64,000 bases of DNA from a virus. The stretch lies in IMG/VR virus record IMGVR_UViG_3300042454_000021, positions 48,926-112,925 of that record; one strand, given 5' to 3'. The position numbers were made by a program, and so were the translations under genes. This document shows positions 9,626-58,423 of the stretch, one piece after another (position 1 is the stretch's first letter; each line of letters starts with the position of its first letter). The notes beneath the pieces were generated by a model. It searched no databases, was not told the DNA's origin, and saw only the letters and a list, made by a program, of their open reading frames with translations.

Positions 9626-9626
9626 T

Positions 9627-9809
9627 ATGAAAAAGAAAGCTCAATCAGGTGCAGCTGTTTCTAACAAGTTCACCATCACTGCAAAACAAGCTCCAGATAA
9701 ATTAGGTAAAAAACCTTCTAAGGTTGATACTACAAAATCATTTGAGAGTAATAAATTCACTATACCTAAGAAGACTATGAAGTCTGGAGGTAAAATGAAA
9801 AAGAAATAA
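9627..9809 (+). CDS. Lys-rich KKAQxG-family protein, 60 aa
   Basis: Start placed at ATG 9627 (MKKKAQSGAAVSNKFTI) rather than 9612, because MKKKAQSG lines up with the starts of the two upstream paralogues and abuts the previous stop. Ends MKSGGKMKKK, the MKSGG motif shared with the 8772 protein. Contains two similar NKFTI segments. Confidence 0.6.
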   Translation: MKKKAQSGAAVSNKFTITAKQAPDKLGKKPSKVDTTKSFESNKFTIPKKTMKSGGKMKKK

Positions 9810-9976
9810 TGATTAAGAAAAAAACAAAGCCTGTGCTTAAAATGCACAAGCCTGCAAAGGCTCCTAAAGTGGCACCTCCTAAACCAGTTGATGCTAACTA
9901 TATGAAGGAGGCTGATACGCCATCACGTCTTAAGAGTAAGATGTGGCCTTTGAAACAAAAAAGACTTTCTAAATAG
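9809..9976 (+). CDS. Small basic protein, 55 aa
   Basis: Starts in a TAATG overlap; MIKKKTKPVLKMHKPAKAPK, then a Pro/Ala-rich stretch and a Lys-rich end. Last gene of the basic-protein cluster, followed by the convergent terminator. Function unknown. Confidence 0.6.
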   Translation: MIKKKTKPVLKMHKPAKAPKVAPPKPVDANYMKEADTPSRLKSKMWPLKQKRLSK

Positions 9977-10017
9977 ATTTTTGTTCGTTTCGATTAAATT
10001 TGTGATTTTGGGTTAAG

Positions 10018-10050
10018 TAAAAAGGGAACCATTTGGCTCCCTTTTTCTTT
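10018..10050. terminator. Bidirectional intrinsic terminator
   Basis: AAAGGGAACC - ATTT - GGCTCCCTTT hairpin (one mismatch) with T-runs on both strands. It separates the converging plus-strand basic-protein operon from the minus-strand early operon, whose last gene ends at 10050. Confidence 0.8.
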
Positions 10051-33834: not shown

Positions 33835-34164
33835 GTTTTTGTGATTTAAAATGTGTAAAAATTATAATATGTAAAACTATAAATTACCAATAAACACCTA
33901 AAAGTGGTAAAATTGAGTAATAGAAAAGCCCCAGATTTCTCTGAGGCTAAAAGCGTTACAAATTGTAACAGTTTAGATAATTAATAAAAGTAGTAGTAAT
34001 ACTACTGATTTACAATGTTAAATTACATCGTCTAATTCGACGATAATTCGAATTATCGTGTATTTTATGACACTTTTTGTCAAATTTTATACCCTTTCAC
34101 GTATAAATTTTGGAAATAGTGCAATATTATACCCTTTCGCATATAATTTAACTAACATCAAGTG
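33835..34164. other. AT-rich non-coding gap, replication-origin candidate
   Basis: Holds no credible gene. Contains a terminator (33919-33948), GTTACAA-A-TTGTAAC dyad (33955-33969), a perfect 20-bp palindrome ACGATAATTCGAATTATCGT (34040-34059), a TGACA/TGTCA hairpin (34068-34082), and two direct repeats of the form TATACCCTTTCnCnTATAA about 41 bases apart (near 34090 and 34130). It lies between the helicase-side operon and the polymerase gene. Iteron-like repeats plus a palindrome suit an origin or initiator-binding region; this is inference. Confidence 0.4.
33919..33948 (-). terminator. Intrinsic terminator with GAAA tetraloop
   Basis: On the minus strand, AGCCTCAGA-GAAA-TCTGGGGCT (9 bp, one wobble) followed by TTTTCTA. 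Ends the polB operon. Confidence 0.85.
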
Positions 34165-41435: not shown

Positions 41436-41535
41436 TAGTCAGGACAGGATTCGAACCTGTATGATGGTTGCTTTAAGATTACGTTTTCACCCTTCTTTCC
41501 ATCTAAGCTAGCGTCTACCATTTCGCCACCTGACT
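41436..41535 (-). tRNA. tRNA-like gene, Leu-type D arm, anticodon unresolved
   Basis: On the minus strand: 7-bp acceptor AGTCAGG/CCTGACT; class-II-style D arm GCG-AAATGGTAGA-CGC, as in tRNA-Leu; canonical T arm ACAGG-TTCGAAT-CCTGT; discriminator A, no encoded CCA. The 50 bases between D and T arms, however, give no 5-bp anticodon stem with a 7-base loop. The best internal helix is GATGG/CCATC around 31 bases. Total 100 bases is 10-15 longer than a normal Leu or Ser tRNA. Could carry an intron-like insert or be decayed. Confidence 0.6.
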
Positions 41536-44584: not shown

Positions 44585-44926
44585 ATGGCAGCACCAAAGA
44601 AAACTACATATATTAATACAGAGCTCGAATGGGCTGAAGAACAATTAAAATCTTGGAGACAGTATGTGGATGCAAATCCCATGCATGAGCTAAAAGATAG
44701 AATTGAGTGGAAACCAACAGCAAAAGGTGGTGTAATGCCCATGGTTATTGCCTCTATTGAGGCTCAGGGCAAGTTCATCCAAGAGACAATGAAGAACTAT
44801 TTAGCTCTTCTCGAAGTGGTGGATAAACTACGTGAGAAAGAAGAGGCTAAAGTGGAAGTGAGGGGTGGTGTAAGTATGAGCTCTAAAGCTGAGAAATGGT
44901 TAAAGCAACGTAATGAAACTACATAA
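44585..44926 (+). CDS. Terminase small subunit candidate
   Basis: 113 aa. Helical, TELEWAEEQLKSWRQYVDAN, IEAQGKFIQETMKNYLALLE, Lys-rich end. Overlaps the large terminase start by 14 bases, the usual position for the DNA-recognition subunit. No HTH motif is clear by eye. Confidence 0.45.
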   Translation: MAAPKKTTYINTELEWAEEQLKSWRQYVDANPMHELKDRIEWKPTAKGGVMPMVIASIEAQGKFIQETMKNYLALLEVVDKLREKEEAKVEVRGGVSMSSKAEKWLKQRNETT

Positions 44927-46937
44927 GGTTGATTATAAAGATTGGTTGATGAATCAGAAGCGTCTACCCACACCTGGCAGTGTTGAGTATGATGCTTTTT
45001 ATGCATTTCATGAGGAGCTTTGTAAGAATGGTTGTATGATGGGAGACACCTACATTAACCCATTCCTCTACTGGCATCTTAATGCATGGCATACAGAGAT
45101 TGACGTTATAGATGATTATGGTAGAATAGCACAGAAATATGCTAACCCATCCTTAAGAGATAATGAGTGGATAGTGAGCTCTGAGATTGATAGAGCACAG
45201 AAGGAGAAAAAGGGCTTAGTTATCCTTGGTATTCGACGTTTTGCTAAGTCTGTTCTAGAGGCATCGTATGTGTCACATGGGGCAACGTTTGATGAGAACT
45301 CACAGAACATTATAGCTGGCCTAAATGCAGCTGATATAAAGCTAATTACAGACAAGATTGACAAAGGATTAAACTATCTACCAGAGGCATGGAAATGGCA
45401 ACGTGTAGAGGATAATTGGAAGAACCAAGTGACGCTTGGTATAAAGACAAGAGGAGGAGAACGTATTCCCTTCTCACAAATATTAATACGTAACTTAGAC
45501 GAAGGTAATAACGAAGAAGCTATTGCTGGTACAAAACCTAGAAGATTAATTATAGATGAAATTGGTAAAGGAAATTTCCTACGAGGCTTTCAAGCAGCTG
45601 TCCCTGGCTTCACAACACCCTTTGGTTGGGGCTGCTCACCAATTCTTACTGGCACTGGTGGGGATATGAAGAAATTTATGGATGCCAAGAGCTTAATGTT
45701 CGATGTTGGCAACTATAACTTCTTAGAGTATAATAATGCTAAAGATGAAAAACGTATACATGGACTATTCATCTCTCACAAGTTTAGAATGGAAGCCAAG
45801 TATGAAAGTTCTCTTGGTGCATATTTAAATCTACCAAAGAAGAACGATTTACACAATGTAAAGATGATGGTGAGTGATGAAGAACTTGCCACAAAGATAA
45901 CTAATGACAATCTCGAAAGGCTTAAGAAAGCTGGAGATAGACTTGCATATTTAAAAGAGAAGATGTACTATCCACAAGAAGTGGATGATATATTCTTAAA
46001 CGAGGATAGTAACATATTTGATATAGAGGGAGCAAAACGACAAAAGGCCAGACTTCTAGCTAATGAACGTACTGGTACGCCTGTTGTGCTATATGATGAT
46101 GGTGATGGTATAAAGCATGAGTTTACAGACAAAATGCCCATCACCAACTTCCCTCTTAAGAATACAGATCATAAGGATGCTCCTATAGTTATATATGAGT
46201 TTCCTGTAGAAAATCCTCCTTATGGGTTATATGTAGCTGGAGTCGATCCATATCGTCAAGGTAAAGCTGCTTATTCAACATCATTAGGAGCTGTATACAT
46301 CTATAAGAGGATGCATGCAATCACAGGTGAGAAGTATCAAGATATGTTTGTAGCTTCGTATTGTGCTCGTCCTGATAAGAAGGAAGTTTGGGAAGAACAA
46401 GCTAGACTCTTGATTAAATATTATAATGCTAGAGCATTGTGTGAGAATGATGAGGTTTCGTTTATTGATTACATGATTTCTAAGAACGATGCTCACTATT
46501 TAGAGAAGCAGCCTGAGTGGTTGAAAGAAGTGGTACCTAACACTACTGTGAGACGTGACTATGGTATACATCGTTCAGCAGAGAAGATTAGAGACTTCTT
46601 ACATGGATGTCTTAAGAAGTATACAGAACAAACTCTCCTTGTTGAAAAGAATGAAGCAGGGGAAATAACTAATGAGAAGAAAGGTATGGTGAAGATATTC
46701 GATCCTGTCCTTTTGGAAGAAATGATTCAGTATAATGAAGATGGTAACTTTGATAGAATCATCGCAGCTGAATTAGCAGTAGCATTAGCTATGAAAATGG
46801 ATCCTATTATGGGAAGAGTGGGATCTTCAGGAGATGCTAGAATAATGGCTATGCATCCAAGAATTAAGAAAAATAAATTGTTTGATGAGTCCAGAGGGCT
46901 TTTCAATAATAGACCTAAACAAAAACTGTTTACATAA
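44913..46937 (+). CDS. terL: Terminase large subunit
   Basis: 674 aa. ATPase: Walker A-like GLVILGIRRFAKSVLEAS (about residues 101-118), Walker B RRLIIDEIGKG near 215, and TGTGGD coupling motif near 245. RNase-H-like nuclease: YVAGVDPYRQGKAAYSTS near 440, further acidic residues in ARALCENDEVSF and near the C-terminus. Packages DNA through the portal. Starts inside the previous gene. Confidence 0.9.
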   Translation: MKLHKVDYKDWLMNQKRLPTPGSVEYDAFYAFHEELCKNGCMMGDTYINPFLYWHLNAWHTEIDVIDDYGRIAQKYANPSLRDNEWIVSSEIDRAQKEKKGLVILGIRRFAKSVLEASYVSHGATFDENSQNIIAGLNAADIKLITDKIDKGLNYLPEAWKWQRVEDNWKNQVTLGIKTRGGERIPFSQILIRNLDEGNNEEAIAGTKPRRLIIDEIGKGNFLRGFQAAVPGFTTPFGWGCSPILTGTGGDMKKFMDAKSLMFDVGNYNFLEYNNAKDEKRIHGLFISHKFRMEAKYESSLGAYLNLPKKNDLHNVKMMVSDEELATKITNDNLERLKKAGDRLAYLKEKMYYPQEVDDIFLNEDSNIFDIEGAKRQKARLLANERTGTPVVLYDDGDGIKHEFTDKMPITNFPLKNTDHKDAPIVIYEFPVENPPYGLYVAGVDPYRQGKAAYSTSLGAVYIYKRMHAITGEKYQDMFVASYCARPDKKEVWEEQARLLIKYYNARALCENDEVSFIDYMISKNDAHYLEKQPEWLKEVVPNTTVRRDYGIHRSAEKIRDFLHGCLKKYTEQTLLVEKNEAGEITNEKKGMVKIFDPVLLEEMIQYNEDGNFDRIIAAELAVALAMKMDPIMGRVGSSGDARIMAMHPRIKKNKLFDESRGLFNNRPKQKLFT

Positions 46938-49522
46938 TGGCAATTATTAGATATACCAAAGATGCGACTATTAGGTATGCGTACCTAAACATCTTCCCTG
47001 ATCAGTTCAAAACTGAGAAGGAGAAAATGGATGAGAGTTGGATCAAGAATACAATGGACTATTTTGCTAATAAGTCCTATGCTGAGTACGTAAAGAATAG
47101 AGATACGTTTGTTAAGAACTATGATCTTGTTAAAGGCATCCTTCGTATGGAGGACTTTTATCAGTCAGCTCCTCAGGTGAAAAGCTTCACAGATATGTTG
47201 ACAGCTGATCTAGAATTACCAGCTTATGTAAAGATGTATTCTATCATCACCACTCCTTTAAATGAGTTAGTTGGTGAGATATCAAAACGTCCTGATGCAT
47301 TTAGAGTTAAAGCATTTGATGATGATTCTAAATCAGAAGAACTAGAATTTAAGACAGGTATTCTACAGGAGTTTGTAATCAATCAAGCTAGACAACAAAT
47401 AATTGAGAAAGCTCAATTACAAGGAGCTGAGATAGATGATGAGCAACTACAACAAATGACAATGGAGGAAGTTCAAGATGAACTTGATTCATACACATCT
47501 GTAGCAGAGAAATGGGCTAATCATGTACTTACATGTCAGAAAGCAGACTTCACATTGAAGGAGAAGAGTGAGGATGCATTTAGAGATATGTTAATATCTG
47601 CTCGTGAGTTCTATCATATATATGAGGATAACTCTAAGCTAGGATATAATATAGAAGTAGCCAACCCTAAGAACACTTGGTTCCTATCTACACCAGATCG
47701 TAAATATGTATCAGATCCAACAGGACGTGCTCAAGGTGCGTATGCTGCTGGTACTGTGCAGGTTATGGAACTCTCTGAAATCATTGAGAGTATTCCTGAT
47801 CTTACTAAAGATGAGATTGATCACTTAAGATCATCATTACAAGACTATGGACTTATTAACGTTCGTGAGTCTAACCTTGGTAATCCTAATGCAGGTAATG
47901 GTATTGATTCAATTCAATATGATACATATGATCCTCTTGTTCTTCAGACACGTATGATGATTGAGTCTGAGATGAAGCAGAACGATGATGGCTTACAAGA
48001 CTTCTTAGGACTTACATCAAATGTGTCTTCATTTGGATACAAGTATGTAGTGGTACGTGCTTATTGGATCTCTAAGAAAAAGATTGGTAAGCTCATCTAT
48101 ACAGATGAAATGGGCAATGAGCAATCTATGCTTGTTGATGAGAATTACAAAAGCAACACTATGCCTACTCAGATCTCATTAGAGTGGGGATGGATTAACC
48201 AATGGTATCAAGGCATTAAAATTGGACCAGATATTTATCATATCAAGCCATTCAAGTTATTAAACTACTGCCCTATCATTGGGCTAGTGCATGAGATTAA
48301 GAACACAGAGGCAAAGTCTTTAGTAGACTTAATGAAACCATTCCAGGTTCTTTACAATGTTTGTATGAATCAGCTTTACAAACTTCTTGAGAAAGAAATT
48401 GGTAAGGTGCAATTAATGTCTATTAGACATATTCCTATTCCTAAAGATGGAGATGCACAAGATGCTCTTGATATCTGGGAGATGGAAGCACGTAACAGAG
48501 GTGTTGTATTTATTGATGACTCTCCAGAGAACTTAAAATCCCCAAGCTCATTTAATCAGTTTAGGGATATTGATATGACACGTACGCAAGAGATTCAATC
48601 TCGTTACACGTTAGCTCAACAATTAAAGAATGAATGTTGGGAACTGATTGGTATGTCTAAACAACGTTTAGGGTCTGTCTCAGCCTCTGAATCTGCTACA
48701 GGTACCAATGCTGCAATTACACAAAGTTATTCGCAGACAGAGCCATTGTTTGTAGCACACGAGTATTTATTAGGTCAATTATATCAAGCTATTATAGATG
48801 CATCGTTATATGTAGAAAGTCAAAAACCACAATCTACTATTTCATATATTACTAATGAAGGTGAGAGTGCATTTGTACAAGTTAATGGAACAGATCTTAA
48901 GTTTAGAGATCTTAAAGTGTTCTTAACTAATCGTCCAGAAGATCAGAAAATGTTCCAAGAGGTTCGTGGATTGTCTCAAGCTGTTATTCAAAATGGTGGA
49001 AGCTTACATGACATCATTGAGCTTTATTCTACAAACTCTGTTCGTCAGATGAAGAAGGTGTTTAAGACTCTTAAAGATCGTCAAGAAGAACTTGAAAACC
49101 AGAAGATGCAACAACAGCAACAACAAATTGAACAACAGCAACAAATTGCTCAAGCTCAGATTCAACAAGTTGCTCAATCTCAACAAGAGAAGATTGCTAA
49201 CGATAACTATCAAGCAGAACTAGATCGTATCAATAAGGTACAGATTGCGATGATTGCAGCTGAATCTAAAGCAGGTCCATTGTCAGATGTTGATACATCT
49301 GGAACTGCTGATGTTCTTGAGATGAGTAAGTTAACTACAGAGCAGAACAAAGCAAGTAAAGATTATGAAGCTAAGATGAAAGATATTCAAAGCAAGAACA
49401 ATATTGCTGCTCAAAAACTAGCTATAGATAACAGAAAGATAGATGCTGAGTTAAAGAATCAAGATAATGATTTACAAATAGCAAAGATAAACGCAAGTAA
49501 TAGAGCTTCAAAGAGTAAGTAA
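46937..49522 (+). CDS. Portal protein
   Basis: 861 aa. Follows terminase with a one-base overlap. Body has KMYSIITTPLNELVGEISKR and LMKPFQVLYNVCMNQLYKLL (portal stem-type helices), ETEP-like SQTEPLFVAHEYLLGQLYQA, and a Gln-rich C-terminal barrel region (EELENQKMQQQQQQIEQQQQ). Size and position match crAss-like portals. Forms the dodecameric DNA channel. Confidence 0.85.
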   Translation: MAIIRYTKDATIRYAYLNIFPDQFKTEKEKMDESWIKNTMDYFANKSYAEYVKNRDTFVKNYDLVKGILRMEDFYQSAPQVKSFTDMLTADLELPAYVKMYSIITTPLNELVGEISKRPDAFRVKAFDDDSKSEELEFKTGILQEFVINQARQQIIEKAQLQGAEIDDEQLQQMTMEEVQDELDSYTSVAEKWANHVLTCQKADFTLKEKSEDAFRDMLISAREFYHIYEDNSKLGYNIEVANPKNTWFLSTPDRKYVSDPTGRAQGAYAAGTVQVMELSEIIESIPDLTKDEIDHLRSSLQDYGLINVRESNLGNPNAGNGIDSIQYDTYDPLVLQTRMMIESEMKQNDDGLQDFLGLTSNVSSFGYKYVVVRAYWISKKKIGKLIYTDEMGNEQSMLVDENYKSNTMPTQISLEWGWINQWYQGIKIGPDIYHIKPFKLLNYCPIIGLVHEIKNTEAKSLVDLMKPFQVLYNVCMNQLYKLLEKEIGKVQLMSIRHIPIPKDGDAQDALDIWEMEARNRGVVFIDDSPENLKSPSSFNQFRDIDMTRTQEIQSRYTLAQQLKNECWELIGMSKQRLGSVSASESATGTNAAITQSYSQTEPLFVAHEYLLGQLYQAIIDASLYVESQKPQSTISYITNEGESAFVQVNGTDLKFRDLKVFLTNRPEDQKMFQEVRGLSQAVIQNGGSLHDIIELYSTNSVRQMKKVFKTLKDRQEELENQKMQQQQQQIEQQQQIAQAQIQQVAQSQQEKIANDNYQAELDRINKVQIAMIAAESKAGPLSDVDTSGTADVLEMSKLTTEQNKASKDYEAKMKDIQSKNNIAAQKLAIDNRKIDAELKNQDNDLQIAKINASNRASKSK

Positions 49523-50903: not shown

Positions 50904-50920
50904 CAATTATTAAATTAAAC
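50904..50920 (+). promoter_or_regulatory. Late leader motif CAATTATTAAATTAAAC (copy 1)
   Basis: 17 bases identical to a copy at 52642-52658. Ends 11 bases before the capsid gene start. Candidate late promoter or A/T-rich translation leader. Confidence 0.45.
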
Positions 50921-50931
50921 ATAAACAAAAA

Positions 50932-52485
50932 ATGGCAATTCAAACTATCCCTGGTTTAACTGGCTTTACTTATGCTCGTGTAGCGTCTATGGACAAACGT
51001 GCAGTAGGTAAATTAACAGACTCTAACCACTTGGAAAGCTTTCACTCAACTGAGCCAGCAGACTACGATAAGAAGATTATCAGTTTGTACACTCAGAGCT
51101 CGTTGTACAGCAATGACTTCTTGGACATGATCAACAAGTCAACTCCTTACTACATCGACAACAATAGTGATGCTTGGAAGTGGCAAGTACAAGTTCCTTA
51201 CAAATTCCCTAAAATCATTGACATTCCTGATTCCACTTTAGCGTTGGATAAGCCAGGTATCGATGGTCAAGAATTTCAAGTGATTATTGACACTAACGAA
51301 TTCTCTAAGAACGCAATCGTTTCTGTAGGTACTCGTCAGTATGGTCCTCGTTGGTATGCGATCAAAGATCCTCAACCATGGAACATGGGTTATTTATACA
51401 CTTTCACATTAGTAACTGACAACCCTCAAGTTGACTTCGTATCACCTGTATTCTTACAGATTGGTTTAGAGTTAGAATTGGTTGATGCTGCTATTGGTGA
51501 ATTTGATCAAGACCTTTTAGGATTGCCACGTTTAGGTGAGCAAATCACTATGTTTGAATCATTGAGTTCTGCATATGGATATGAGCACAAAATTACTGAA
51601 TGGGCTGATGACAAGATGTTAGTTAATGCTGATGGTTCAGCTTTAGATATCTTAGTATATGCTCCACAACGTCGTAACCAACTTCCTTTAACTCGTAATG
51701 ATGTTAAGTGGGAGCCATTCGTTGAGTTCTGGATGCGTAAGTCTATGTTAGAATTAAAGGTTAAGCGTATGATCTGGGCTCGTCCAGGTACTGTTAAATC
51801 TAATGGTTCTAAGCAAGAATTAAAGCGTACATCTGCTGGTGTTTATCACAGAATGCGTAACAATGGTAACTTAGTTCAATACAATCGTGGAGAATTCACT
51901 GCTAACTTGATTCGTTCAGTATTTGGTGATTTATTCTATCGTCGTGTGGATGTTAAGGATCGTCGTGTTAAAATGTACACTAACGAAGCTGGCTTCGACG
52001 TGTTCCAACAAGCACTTAAAACTGATGCATTAAATTCTGGTTTAACTTTCATGGCTGATTCAGGTAATCGCTACATGCAAGGAGAAGGACAACACATCAC
52101 TTACAACTTTGCATTCGATGCAATGGTTACTCGTGAGACTGGTCGTGTTGAGTTAATTCACTTAAAAGAATTAGACCTTCCTCAAACTAACTTAGAATTT
52201 GGACAAAACAAGAAATCAACTCCAGTATTTATGGTGTTTGACGTTTCTCCAATGTCTGATGGATCTATGGTTAATAACATTCGTGAGGTACGTATGAAGG
52301 GTGCTCCTTCTATGACTTGGGGTTATATCGATGGTACTCGTCATCACTTAGGATTTGCAAAATCTCAAGGTATGTCAAGTGCTAACAAATTCCCAGGATA
52401 CGAAATCTGGATGAAGGATCGTTGTGATGTGTTCATTGAAGACTTGTCTCGTACAGTCTTGATCGAAGAAATCCCTCAGTTCTAA
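50932..52485 (+). CDS. Major capsid protein
   Basis: 517 aa. Located after portal and scaffold; codon choice is visibly more regular and GC-richer than neighbours, as expected for the most abundant protein. Contains a long helix region and HK97-type length, with GFTYARVASMDKRAVGKLTD, a basic segment RRNQLPLTRND, and NYN-type beta regions. Not confirmed by a fold search, but the position and composition are persuasive. Forms the icosahedral shell. Confidence 0.8.
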   Translation: MAIQTIPGLTGFTYARVASMDKRAVGKLTDSNHLESFHSTEPADYDKKIISLYTQSSLYSNDFLDMINKSTPYYIDNNSDAWKWQVQVPYKFPKIIDIPDSTLALDKPGIDGQEFQVIIDTNEFSKNAIVSVGTRQYGPRWYAIKDPQPWNMGYLYTFTLVTDNPQVDFVSPVFLQIGLELELVDAAIGEFDQDLLGLPRLGEQITMFESLSSAYGYEHKITEWADDKMLVNADGSALDILVYAPQRRNQLPLTRNDVKWEPFVEFWMRKSMLELKVKRMIWARPGTVKSNGSKQELKRTSAGVYHRMRNNGNLVQYNRGEFTANLIRSVFGDLFYRRVDVKDRRVKMYTNEAGFDVFQQALKTDALNSGLTFMADSGNRYMQGEGQHITYNFAFDAMVTRETGRVELIHLKELDLPQTNLEFGQNKKSTPVFMVFDVSPMSDGSMVNNIREVRMKGAPSMTWGYIDGTRHHLGFAKSQGMSSANKFPGYEIWMKDRCDVFIEDLSRTVLIEEIPQF

Positions 52486-52489
52486 TACA

Positions 52490-52633
52490 TGGGACTTTGT
52501 CCCACGCTTATCAATCGATAAGCACAAGAAGACCTCCTCATTCCTCCCTCCTAAAATGGGGAGGCTCTTCTTGACACAGAGTGCTTGGATTGGGGTGTCC
52601 CTGGTCGCTATTCCTTCGATGGATAGCACTCTG
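52490..52633 (+). ncRNA. Four-hairpin cassette after the capsid gene
   Basis: No gene. Hairpins in order: TGGGAC-TTT-GTCCCA (52490-52504); GCTTATC-AATC-GATAAGC (52506-52523); AAGAAGACCTCC/GGAGGCTCTTCTT with one bulge (52526-52572); CAGAGTGCT/AGCACTCTG (52577-52633, with further pairing inside). All helices are near perfect and fill 144 bases; no T-run follows, so it is not a standard terminator. Likely protects or processes the capsid mRNA. Confidence 0.65.
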
Positions 52634-52641
52634 CTAAAAAC

Positions 52642-52658
52642 CAATTATTAAATTAAAC
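52642..52658 (+). promoter_or_regulatory. Late leader motif CAATTATTAAATTAAAC (copy 2)
   Basis: Identical to the copy at 50904-50920. ATG of the next gene is 6 bases downstream. Confidence 0.45.
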
Positions 52659-52663
52659 TACAT

Positions 52664-53632
52664 ATGGGTAAGATAGGCAAAATTTCTACTATTAAGAAAG
52701 ATTACAACAATTCGCAATTGCAGACAATGCAAGGTGGACTTTCACGTGAAGGTTTGACACGAGTTCCAGGTACAGGTGTTTTTAAATATCCTTACAAGGA
52801 AATGGATGGTCAGTATCGTACAGGATTAAATGCTGAAGCTGCATACATCAGACGTATAGCTGATCCTACAGAACGTGAATTAGAAATCGAACGTGTAACA
52901 TCTTTACGTCAACGTTTAGAATATGCATTAGGTGATGTTGATTTAGGTCCTCGTTCTAAGTTTTGGAACTATGGATTATCTCAAGGCATTGATGATATGA
53001 TGCACGTGCAACCAGTGAAACTATTAGATGGTGATAACTTTTTTGATTTCACTAATCCAATGCAAGAATTAGCATTTTCTTGGTTGAGAGTTCATCCAAC
53101 AATTGCAAGTTCATATCAAGCTTGGGAGCGTGGAGAGTTTCCAGCAGATACACAATTCTATGTTGTAGATGATGAAATTGAAAACGCAGTTCTTTACAAG
53201 AAGAAGCAAGTGATAAACAAGGCAATTGTCAAGTTTGATTCTATGTCTCCTGATAAGAAGAAGAAAGTAGCAAGGATGTTAGGCTTACCTGTAACAGAAG
53301 AAACTAAAGAAGAAGTTGTTTATAACCAAGTGGATAACTTGTTAAAACAAACAGAATTCAAAGATGGAAAATACCAAGGGTTATCTCCAATTGAAGTCTT
53401 CAATAGATTCGCAGATATGAAAGACCAATTGCTTGCAATTAAAGATTTGGTTAAACAAGCAATTACACATTCTATTTATCGTATAAAACCTAATGGTAAG
53501 GTTTATATGGGAGAACTAGAAATGGCAGTTGATGAAGAAGAATTAGTTAAATACCTTGCAGATGAAGATCATCAAGATGATTTACTAATCTTAGAACAAA
53601 AGTTAAAAGGTAAAAAATTAGCAACAGTATGA
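52664..53632 (+). CDS. Virion structural protein, 322 aa
   Basis: Follows the capsid gene. LTRVPGTGVFKYPYKEMDGQ, ALGDVDLGPRSKFWNYGLSQ, and a helical C-terminal half ending KGKKLATV. Probably a head-vertex or head-completion protein conserved in this phage group; no specific family named. Overlaps the next gene by 4 bases. Confidence 0.6.
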   Translation: MGKIGKISTIKKDYNNSQLQTMQGGLSREGLTRVPGTGVFKYPYKEMDGQYRTGLNAEAAYIRRIADPTERELEIERVTSLRQRLEYALGDVDLGPRSKFWNYGLSQGIDDMMHVQPVKLLDGDNFFDFTNPMQELAFSWLRVHPTIASSYQAWERGEFPADTQFYVVDDEIENAVLYKKKQVINKAIVKFDSMSPDKKKKVARMLGLPVTEETKEEVVYNQVDNLLKQTEFKDGKYQGLSPIEVFNRFADMKDQLLAIKDLVKQAITHSIYRIKPNGKVYMGELEMAVDEEELVKYLADEDHQDDLLILEQKLKGKKLATV

Positions 53633-56539: not shown

Positions 56540-58423
56540 ATGTCTTGTTTACCAGGAATGCCATGTTACAATGAAGTGATATACACTAACTCGCAGCAAG
56601 GTTGTGGGTGTTGTGGTGTATCTACTTGCAGTGGTCAATGTGGTTGTGACACCAACATAAATTGTGGAGTGAGTTCTAATGATGTAACTTACGTAGGGCC
56701 TAACCTTCCACACACAGGAGTACAAAATCTTACAGATCTAACCACTGCTCTTGAGCAGATGGATACTGCCATTGGCGATATACAACAATACAATGGTTCT
56801 AGTGGTACCTCTGGAGCTAATGGCTCTAGTGGTAGAAATGGTACTAGTGGTAGAGATGGCACAAATGGTAATGATGGAGATAGAGGATCAGCAGGTACAT
56901 CAGGTATAAATGGAACTAGTGGATCCTCAGGTGTTTCTGGTGCTACAGGTACTTCAGGTTCATCAGGAACCAATGGCTCTTCTGGCTCATCAGGATCTTC
57001 AGGATCATCTGGTACAAGCGCATCTTCTGGAACATCAGGTACAAATGGTACCTCTGGTACATCAGGATCTAATGGTATATCTGGAACTGATGGCTCATCA
57101 GGAACAGATGGATCAAATGGTACATCAGGAACTTCAGGAACTTCTGCAACATCTGGAACATCAGGACTAACTGGTACTGCTGGTACAAGTGGTCTATCAG
57201 GAGATAGATATGCTACAATATCATTAACACCATTAACTATTGGTACAGGTCTTGCAGTATTTGATGTTGAATCTGGTCTTGCTTATACAATTGGTCAAGA
57301 GGTTATAATAAGTTATGGTGTAGGAAATACTATGATTGGTACTGTTTCATTATATGAAGCTGATTGTGGTGAAATGATTGTAGATGTTGACACAATTACA
57401 GGATCAGGATCATATGAACCATGGTCAGTTAACTTAAATGGTATAGCTGCAGTTAATGGTACTTCTGGAACTTCAGGAATAACAGGAACTTCAGGAACAA
57501 GTGGTATTACAGGTACTTCAGGAACGTCAGGTACATCAGGATTATCAGGAACAGGTGGTACTTCAGGTACAAGTGGTTTAACAGGAACTTCAGGTACATC
57601 AGCTACGTCTGGTTTAACAGGTACAAATGGTACAACAGGTACAAATGGATCTTCAGGAACTTCAGGTGCTTCTGGATCAAGTGGTGTAAATGGAACATCA
57701 GGTTCTTCAGGTACAAGTGCTACTAGTGGTGCCAATGGTTCTGCAGGTACAACTGGTACAAGTGGAGCAAATGGTGCTCCAGGAGGCGTAGGTCCTACAG
57801 GTCCAACAGGTCCTACAGGTGGTGCAGGAGGTCCTGGTCCAACAGGTCCTATTGGTCCTCCAGGTACTGGAGGTGCTGCTGCTACAATTGCTGTTGGTCC
57901 AACTACTACAGGTCCTGCAGGTACACCTGCAAATGTTTCGAATAGTGGAACAAGTTCTGCAGCAGTGTTTAACTTTACAATACCTCAAGGTCCTACAGGT
58001 CCTCCAGGTACAGGATTTACAACGATTACAGGTAACCCTGGAGCATTAGGTACATATCAAGTATTAATGTCTACAGGTGCATCTAATACAGCATTTGCTG
58101 CTACCAACGTATATATAAGTGGTGGTTCTTACAATCAATTAAATGCTGATTCATTTTATCAAACGTCTTTAAGGGCTGCTAAAACTAATATTGAAACATA
58201 TGAAGGAGATGCTTTAGATTTAATATCTCGTACAACCATTGTTAGTTTTGCATACAAGAACGATCCTAGTGTAATTCATTATGGATTTATTGCAGACGAC
58301 ACTCCTGTAGAGATGGCCACTGTTGAACAAAACAGAATGGACACAAACTCTACAATTGGTATATTGATAAAGGCTGTACAAGAATTAGAAGCTAGAGTTA
58401 AAAAAGTAGAAGGCAATGACTAA
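56540..58423 (+). CDS. Collagen-like tail fibre with C-terminal S74 chaperone domain
   Basis: 627 aa. Cys-rich N-terminus (CCGVSTCSGQCGCDTNINCG), then long Gly-Thr-Ser triplet repeats, a globular insert starting GLSGDRY like the fibre at 2636, more triplets and a Gly-Pro-Thr/Gly-Pro-Pro stretch (about 415-450). Residues about 525-627 match the self-cleaving Peptidase_S74 intramolecular chaperone: SLRAAKTNIETYEGDALDLI, HYGFIADDTP, IGILIKAVQELEARVKKVE. Trimeric fibre, chaperone released after folding. Confidence 0.8.
   Translation: MSCLPGMPCYNEVIYTNSQQGCGCCGVSTCSGQCGCDTNINCGVSSNDVTYVGPNLPHTGVQNLTDLTTALEQMDTAIGDIQQYNGSSGTSGANGSSGRNGTSGRDGTNGNDGDRGSAGTSGINGTSGSSGVSGATGTSGSSGTNGSSGSSGSSGSSGTSASSGTSGTNGTSGTSGSNGISGTDGSSGTDGSNGTSGTSGTSATSGTSGLTGTAGTSGLSGDRYATISLTPLTIGTGLAVFDVESGLAYTIGQEVIISYGVGNTMIGTVSLYEADCGEMIVDVDTITGSGSYEPWSVNLNGIAAVNGTSGTSGITGTSGTSGITGTSGTSGTSGLSGTGGTSGTSGLTGTSGTSATSGLTGTNGTTGTNGSSGTSGASGSSGVNGTSGSSGTSATSGANGSAGTTGTSGANGAPGGVGPTGPTGPTGGAGGPGPTGPIGPPGTGGAAATIAVGPTTTGPAGTPANVSNSGTSSAAVFNFTIPQGPTGPPGTGFTTITGNPGALGTYQVLMSTGASNTAFAATNVYISGGSYNQLNADSFYQTSLRAAKTNIETYEGDALDLISRTTIVSFAYKNDPSVIHYGFIADDTPVEMATVEQNRMDTNSTIGILIKAVQELEARVKKVEGND

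What the first reader, a model, noticed from the sequence alone, without database searches (positions are those of the whole stretch)
52490..52633. Dense four-hairpin cassette directly after the capsid gene
Almost all bases in 144 nt pair in four consecutive near-perfect stems and no T-run follows, unlike the four intrinsic terminators nearby. A structured element placed only after the most abundant mRNA suggests RNase protection, processing or a non-coding RNA cut from the transcript.
Basis: seen in the sequence. Interest (0 to 1): 0.65.

Follow-up and report, generated by a model that had tools for sequence, protein, structure and literature searches.

The report
Conserved structured RNA after phage capsid gene
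A large group of crAss-like, mostly metagenomic phages keeps a folded RNA (two small hairpins, one long hairpin and a three-way junction) directly after the capsid gene, where other crAss-like phages have an ordinary transcription terminator; it probably acts as an RNA boundary that separates capsid mRNA from the rest of the operon.

Summary
Window 52490-52633, between the crAss-type major capsid gene (MCP) and the next gene, folds far better than chance and is the most structured of 22 gaps of 90 nt or more in the window. No U-run follows. About 70% of the bases pair, and the fourth "stem" is a three-way junction (M3). M3 has a near-invariant bulged G and a UUCRNU hairpin loop.

Of 132 distinct intergenic sequences from relatives with near-identical MCPs, all but one keep a stem-bounded M3 there (several identified by eye). 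Covariation is strong: 21 of 22 pairs show double changes, and parsimony needs at least 178 pair-to-pair switches. G·U outnumbers A·C 126:35 and the plus strand folds better, so this is an RNA on the mRNA strand. It is single-copy where detected and matches no Rfam family.

Four named crAss-like phages and several distant relatives have a hairpin right after MCP, usually an intrinsic terminator. Here that place is taken by long hairpin M2 without a U-run, then an A-rich, G-free linker, then M3.

Best reading, inferred: an intercistronic RNA boundary giving capsid mRNA its own protected 3' end by processing or weak termination, with M3 shielding the downstream 5' end. A trans-acting RNA or protein-binding element is not excluded. 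No transcript data were available.

The parts
50932..52485 (+). Major capsid protein gene (517 aa), Pfam Crass_capsid PF23898, PHROG 11589 major head protein
52490..52504 (+). M1a: hairpin TGGGA-CTTTG-TCCCA just after the MCP stop codon
   Evidence: replaced by other hairpins in relatives
52506..52523 (+). M1b: hairpin GCTTATC-AATC-GATAAGC
   Evidence: kept in near relatives, replaced in others
52525..52573 (+). M2: long hairpin CAAGAAGACCTCCTC...GGGGAGGCTCTTCTTG (18 bp, one bulge). Purine-rich lower 5' arm, pyrimidine-rich lower 3' arm, GC-rich upper stem, C-rich apical loop
   Evidence: covariation of the internal-loop type in relatives
52574..52576 (+). Single-stranded linker ACA between M2 and M3 (2-8 nt, 65% A, no G in 78 distinct M2 contexts); proposed cut or release site
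   Evidence: function inferred
52577..52634 (+). M3: three-way junction, 58 nt including the conserved C that follows P1. P1 52577-52584/52626-52633, P2 52585-52610, P3 52611-52624
   Evidence: CM R1 50.8 bits; covariation
52607..52607 (+). Bulged G in the 3' strand of P2, conserved in 88 of 92 distinct rows
52615..52620 (+). P3 hexaloop UUCGAU (consensus UUCRNU)
52635..52663 (+). AT-rich leader with AAACCAA...ACTACAT before the next start codon; present even in L051, which lacks M3
   Evidence: M3 end to start codon usually 27 nt
52664..53632 (+). Next gene (322 aa, PHROG 16383, unknown function), separated from MCP by the element

Best explanation
The element is a conserved, multi-domain RNA in the late mRNA of this crAss-like phage group, and it marks the border between the capsid coding sequence and the rest of the head/tail operon. 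Shown: conserved position, RNA-level (plus strand) covariation of M2 and M3, modular make-up, single copy where detected, no U-run, and replacement of a site that carries a terminator or strong hairpin in other crAss-like phages. Inferred: the MCP mRNA receives its own 3' end here, either by endonucleolytic cutting in M2 or in the A-rich, G-free linker behind it, or by weak termination at M2. The M1 and M2 hairpins then block 3'-to-5' exonucleases so the capsid mRNA outlives the rest. M3 forms the protected 5' end of the downstream mRNA, so the minor structural genes are still made, but at a lower level. The near-invariant bulged G and UUCRNU loop suggest that M3 is recognised by a specific, unidentified partner.
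For: Same place in all relatives with the MCP-next gene junction. M3 covariation: 89.6% of cells paired, 21/22 pairs with double changes, 181 double-change cells against 57.5 shuffled, slid controls 31-43% paired; at least 178 pair-to-pair switches on an MCP nucleotide tree. M2 covariation: 97.1% paired, 68 double-change cells against 23 shuffled. RNA strand: G-U 126 against A-C 35; plus strand more stable in 57 of 60. M2 to M3 spacing 2-8 nt, linker 65% A and 0% G; longest T-run near the M2 3' end is 2 or less in 70 of 78. Post-MCP hairpins in crAss001 (CTCCTTTTTCTTTTTT), phi17:2 (CTGCTTTTTAATT), csAssE-Sib (CCGCAAATTTTGTTTTC), and cr130_1 without a U-run, and U-run hairpins in distant relatives. 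A sub-clade (L178, L195, L244, L246) has a U-run hairpin at the M2 place and keeps a P1 stem. HNH genes, a tRNA-Met and extra hairpins are inserted downstream of M3, leaving MCP-M1-M2-M3 intact.
Against: No transcript data, so neither cutting nor termination is shown. M2 (13-18 bp) is short for a classical RNase III substrate. Hosts and their RNases are unknown. M3 sits a nearly fixed 27 nt from the next start codon, which would also suit a translational or regulatory leader. A purely mechanical protector would not need a conserved bulge and loop. One contig (L051) lacks M3 altogether.
Confidence: 0.5

Rival explanations
1. M3 (with or without M2) is a cis-regulatory 5' leader: a phage or host protein, or a ligand, binds the junction and controls translation or transcription of the next gene, for example as assembly feedback.
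For: M3 lies a near-constant 27 nt upstream of the next start codon. Conserved unpaired bulged G and UUCRNU loop look like a binding site.
Against: HNH genes, a tRNA or extra hairpins inserted between M3 and the next gene separate them. L051 lacks M3 but keeps the leader and gene. No alternative terminator or sequestering structure was seen.
Confidence: 0.2
2. The element, mainly M3, is processed out of the late mRNA as a stable small RNA that acts in trans on host or phage mRNAs or binds a virion or packaging protein.
For: Compact, independently folding, strongly conserved domain. M2 and M3 are separated by short unpaired linkers. C-rich M2 loops in one M2 type could pair with G-rich sites.
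Against: Except for the bulge and the P3 loop, M3 has no conserved single-stranded stretch that could serve as a seed. M1 and M2 sequences are swapped freely.
Confidence: 0.15
3. M2 is a leaky intrinsic terminator that lowers transcription downstream of the capsid gene, as terminators after capsid genes do in other phages; M3 is a minor accessory.
For: Other crAss-like phages carry U-run terminators in the same place, as does one sub-clade. The window M2 passes a loose terminator scan with 5 T in 8.
Against: The M2 3' arm is interrupted by C and has almost no T-run longer than 2, as if termination were avoided. It does not explain the strong conservation of M3.
Confidence: 0.12
4. DNA-level palindromes (recombination, packaging or homing-endonuclease site) rather than RNA.
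For: HNH genes insert just downstream in several relatives.
Against: G-U exceeds A-C 126:35; plus strand more stable in 57/60; the HNH insertion point is the start codon after M3, not the hairpins.
Confidence: 0.03

Closest known systems
Intrinsic terminator directly after MCP in other crAss-like phages (crAss001, Cellulophaga phi17:2, csAssE-Sib)
   Same: Same position between MCP and the next head gene; GC-rich stem, purine-rich 5' and pyrimidine-rich 3' lower arm
   Different: Here no U-run, a longer and often internally looped stem, extra M1 hairpins, and a conserved three-way junction behind it
Intercistronic hairpin of the Rhodobacter puf operon (differential mRNA stability; cited in PMC6238624, details from general knowledge)
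   Same: A structured intercistronic region that, in puf, lets the upstream, highly needed product's mRNA outlive the downstream part
   Different: puf is a bacterial photosynthesis operon without a conserved three-way junction; mRNA decay was not measured here
Phage T7 RNase III sites and terminator T-phi after gene 10 (from general knowledge)
   Same: Hairpins between late genes that cut or partly terminate transcripts near the capsid gene
   Different: T7 T-phi has a U-run; M2 is shorter than most RNase III sites; no link to RNase III shown
L17 downstream element and similar 3'-UTR RNA motifs (PMC2864571); Mu-gpT downstream element (recalled, not tested by name)
   Same: Conserved structured RNA located downstream of one particular gene
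   Different: Different sequence, structure and hosts; no Rfam family matches this element

Membership tests
Intrinsic (Rho-independent) terminator | GC-rich hairpin | tested here: met
   M2 upper stem
Intrinsic (Rho-independent) terminator | Uninterrupted U-run right after the stem | tested here: not met
   Window: CTCTTCTTGACA; in 70 of 78 distinct M2 contexts the longest T-run is 2 or less
Any Rfam 15 family | Covariance-model match at gathering score | tested here: not met
   No match in the window region or in 10 relatives
tRNA or tRNA-like RNase P substrate | ARAGORN/Rfam tRNA call, 5-bp T-arm with 7-nt loop stacked on a 7-bp acceptor | tested here: not met
   No call at the element; P3 is 4 bp with a 6-nt loop and an unpaired A before P1
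RNase III processing site (T7 type) | Stem of about two helical turns or a stem with an asymmetric internal loop | tested here: inconclusive
   M2 has 13-18 bp; one M2 type has a conserved 5x2 internal loop; cleavage not testable
Dispersed palindromic DNA repeat (REP/MITE-like) | Several copies per genome | tested here: not met
   One match in the own record and in 15 of the 18 related long records searched, never more than one; the other three had none: L051, L057 (below threshold) and L096, which was a chance pattern hit
Intercistronic mRNA-stability element (puf type) | Different half-lives of mRNA on its two sides | not testable with these tools
   Needs RNA decay data

The most novel reading that the evidence does not exclude
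M3 is the first member of a new phage RNA class: a compact three-way-junction RNA cut from the capsid mRNA that binds a virion, packaging or host ribosome/RNase component through its bulged G and UUCRNU loop, so that capsid synthesis is tied to assembly or to host takeover in a very widespread phage group.
Probability: 0.18. Interest if true: 0.8.

Novelty: new variant of a known kind. Interest (0 to 1): 0.55.

Why it matters
crAss-like phages are among the most abundant phages known, and how they make hundreds of capsid subunits but few copies of neighbouring head proteins from one operon is not understood. This gives a sharply defined RNA element, conserved across at least a hundred distinct sequences where related phages have a plain terminator. 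It makes the capsid-dosage question directly testable and adds a new structured-RNA family with a specific conserved core.

Tried and rejected
Rfam matches with loose thresholds: only chance-level hits. tRNA-like reading of M3: the T-loop geometry fails and there is no ARAGORN call. Alternative pairing of the C-rich M2 loop with the 3' arm: no better than shuffled loops (mean 5.4 against 5.1 bp), so it is compositional. DNA-level palindrome: strand asymmetry argues against it. Repeats elsewhere in the genome: none. A shared 16-mer in the leaders of MCP and the next gene as a promoter: exact twice in the window, but 3-mismatch matches occur about as often as chance, so not pursued. Blastn against named phages found nothing. 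Literature searches for an earlier description returned none. RNAalifold of the long-loop M2 type failed because lengths vary too much. M3 in distant crAss-like phages: no model hit.

Full report
WHAT IS THERE. The window is part of a 112,925-base virus record. Its late operon runs TerL (44913-46937), portal (46937-49522), a 412-aa protein, MCP (50932-52485), a 322-aa protein, a 243-aa protein and so on. This is the crAss-like order seen in phi17:2, cr130_1, csAssE-Sib and crAss001. The MCP matches Pfam Crass_capsid, and the terminase is 33% identical to Cellulophaga phi17:2 and 40% to Leptolyngbya phage Lbo-JY46. Between MCP and the next gene lie 178 nt (52486-52663) that hold the reported element.

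STRUCTURE. The plus strand of 52470-52660 folds at -67.5 kcal/mol (z = -5.9, 0 of 200 shuffles as stable). Among all 22 gaps of at least 90 nt between called ORFs in the window, this one is the most structured (z = -7.8; next -4.9). Four units can be read: M1a (52490-52504) and M1b (52506-52523), small hairpins; M2 (52525-52573), an 18-bp hairpin with one bulge; and M3 (52577-52634), which is not a fourth hairpin but a three-way junction (P1, P2 with a bulged G, P3 with loop UUCGAU). No T-run follows.

CONSERVATION. Every complete locus has a structured intergenic region of about 120-250 nt in this place, longer only where a gene is inserted. A covariance model of M3 (R1) hits once per locus, always here. 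Of 75 contigs found by an M3 sequence pattern, 69 carry M3, all next to the MCP and/or the next gene where the contig reaches them; the other six have neither gene nor a model hit. The own record and 15 of 18 related long records searched hold exactly one match; the exceptions are L051 (no M3), L057 (below threshold) and L096 (a chance pattern hit). In all I collected 132 distinct intergenic sequences from 218 loci. Only one, L051 (re-fetched as L168), lacks M3 altogether. About six of the 100 representatives are not found by the model but show the P1 stem by eye; in the L178 type the inner topology is uncertain. L248, with an 87% identical MCP on a contig in a Tissierellales MAG (possibly a binning artefact), folds into the same topology with an entirely different P1 and the same UUCGAU loop, but the model does not detect it.

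COVARIATION. On 44 distinct M3 rows, 89.6% of cells pair, 21 of 22 pairs show changes on both sides, and there are 181 double-change cells against 57.5 in shuffles. Sliding the partners by 1-3 columns drops pairing to 31-43%. On an MCP nucleotide tree of 72 taxa, parsimony needs at least 178 Watson-Crick to Watson-Crick switches over these pairs (recombination between capsid gene and element would inflate this). M2 of the internal-loop type gives 97.1% paired cells and 68 double changes against 23. The alignments used were fitted to, or chosen for, the structure, which favours it somewhat, but the size of the effect is far beyond the controls.

WHICH STRAND. In 92 distinct M3 rows G·U pairs number 126 and A·C 35. 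For 60 intergenic regions the plus strand has mean z = -5.6 (none above -3.2) against -3.6 for the minus strand, and the plus strand is the more extreme in 57. The element therefore works as RNA in the sense of the MCP mRNA.

ANATOMY ACROSS RELATIVES. M1 is a set of interchangeable hairpins after the stop codon. M2 has two designs: a lower purine/pyrimidine stem, a 5x2 internal loop and a C/G upper stem, or an uninterrupted 13-18 bp stem with a 12-17 nt C-rich loop. M2 is followed by a linker of 2-8 nt, 65% A and without a single G in 78 distinct contexts. The longest T-run near the M2 3' end is two or less in 70 of 78. Then comes M3, whose conserved unpaired positions are the bulged G (88/92), the loop UUCRNU and an A before the P1 3' strand. 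The distance from M3 to the next start codon is 22-35 nt in 185 or more of 206 loci (mode 27), while the distance from the MCP stop to M3 varies from 54 to 156 nt. In 17 of these loci the next gene starts about 350 nt away; where the extra ORF was translated (8 loci) it is a small HNH-endonuclease gene starting just after M3 and its leader, and the two tested against PHROGs match family 2255. L052 has a tRNA-Met there.

COMPARISON WITH OTHER CRASS-LIKE PHAGES. In crAss001 the MCP is followed by AAAAGGGGAGGG...CTCCCTCTCCTTTTTCTTTTTT, in phi17:2 by AAAAGCAGAG...CTCTGCTTTTTAATT, and in csAssE-Sib by a 10-bp hairpin with a T-rich tail; cr130_1 has a strong hairpin without a U-run. Several relatives of Lbo-JY46 (MCP about 25% identical to the window's) also have hairpins with U-runs there. 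M3 is absent in all these. Within the window's own group, L178, L195, L244 and L246 carry a U-run hairpin at the M2 place while keeping a P1 stem. The position after the capsid gene is therefore generally a 3'-end-forming place, and in this group the simple terminator has been replaced by an elaborate RNA without a U-run. That the terminator is ancestral is an inference.

MECHANISM. I think the likeliest function is an intercistronic boundary: cutting or weak release at M2 or the A-rich linker, protection of the capsid mRNA's 3' end by M1/M2, and M3 as the structured 5' end of the downstream mRNA. The known analogue in effect is the puf intercistronic hairpin (cited in PMC6238624; details from general knowledge). 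The conserved bulge and loop of M3 indicate a specific binding partner that I cannot name. A protein- or ligand-responsive leader, a released ncRNA and a leaky terminator are live rivals. None of these steps is shown; all need transcript data.

NOVELTY. No Rfam family matches in the window or in ten relatives, and literature searches found no description (the library is incomplete). As a kind it belongs with conserved intergenic or 3'-UTR RNA elements (for example the L17 downstream element, PMC2864571), so I call it a new variant of a known kind. The three-way-junction domain is a new RNA family as far as Rfam goes.

Noticed in passing
window 50905-50920 and 52643-52658: An identical 16-mer AATTATTAAATTAAAC lies in the leaders of the MCP gene and of the gene after it; possible shared translation or transcription signal.
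   Followed up: partly
L017, L018, L025, L058, L062, L067, L068, L093 (after M3); longer gaps of similar size in other loci: Small free-standing HNH endonuclease genes (PHROG 2255 in the two tested) inserted at the start-codon position right after M3 and its leader.
   Followed up: partly
L052 4728-4802: tRNA-Met (CAT) inserted between M3 and the next gene.
   Followed up: partly
window 41436-41535 (-): Rfam tRNA match of 100 nt (38.4 bits) that ARAGORN does not call; tRNA ends are clear but the middle is odd: degenerate, or carrying an insert.
   Followed up: no
window 33835-34164 and 9626-10049: Two other gaps with more structure than shuffled sequence (z = -4.9 and -3.6).
   Followed up: no
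M2 apical loops in L043, L101, L111, L157, L190 and others: The C-rich loop of the uninterrupted M2 type carries a recurrent UCCYWCC motif that resembles the 16S anti-Shine-Dalgarno sequence.
   Followed up: partly
M1 region of L055, L062, L181, L197, L202, L242: A recurring GCUUACCnUAAGAnCAGC-like motif inside the M1 hairpin of several relatives, possibly a pseudoknot.
   Followed up: no
window 56540-58423: Large tail-fibre gene with collagen-like GTSG repeats and a chaperone-like C-terminus (PHROG tail-fibre hits).
   Followed up: no
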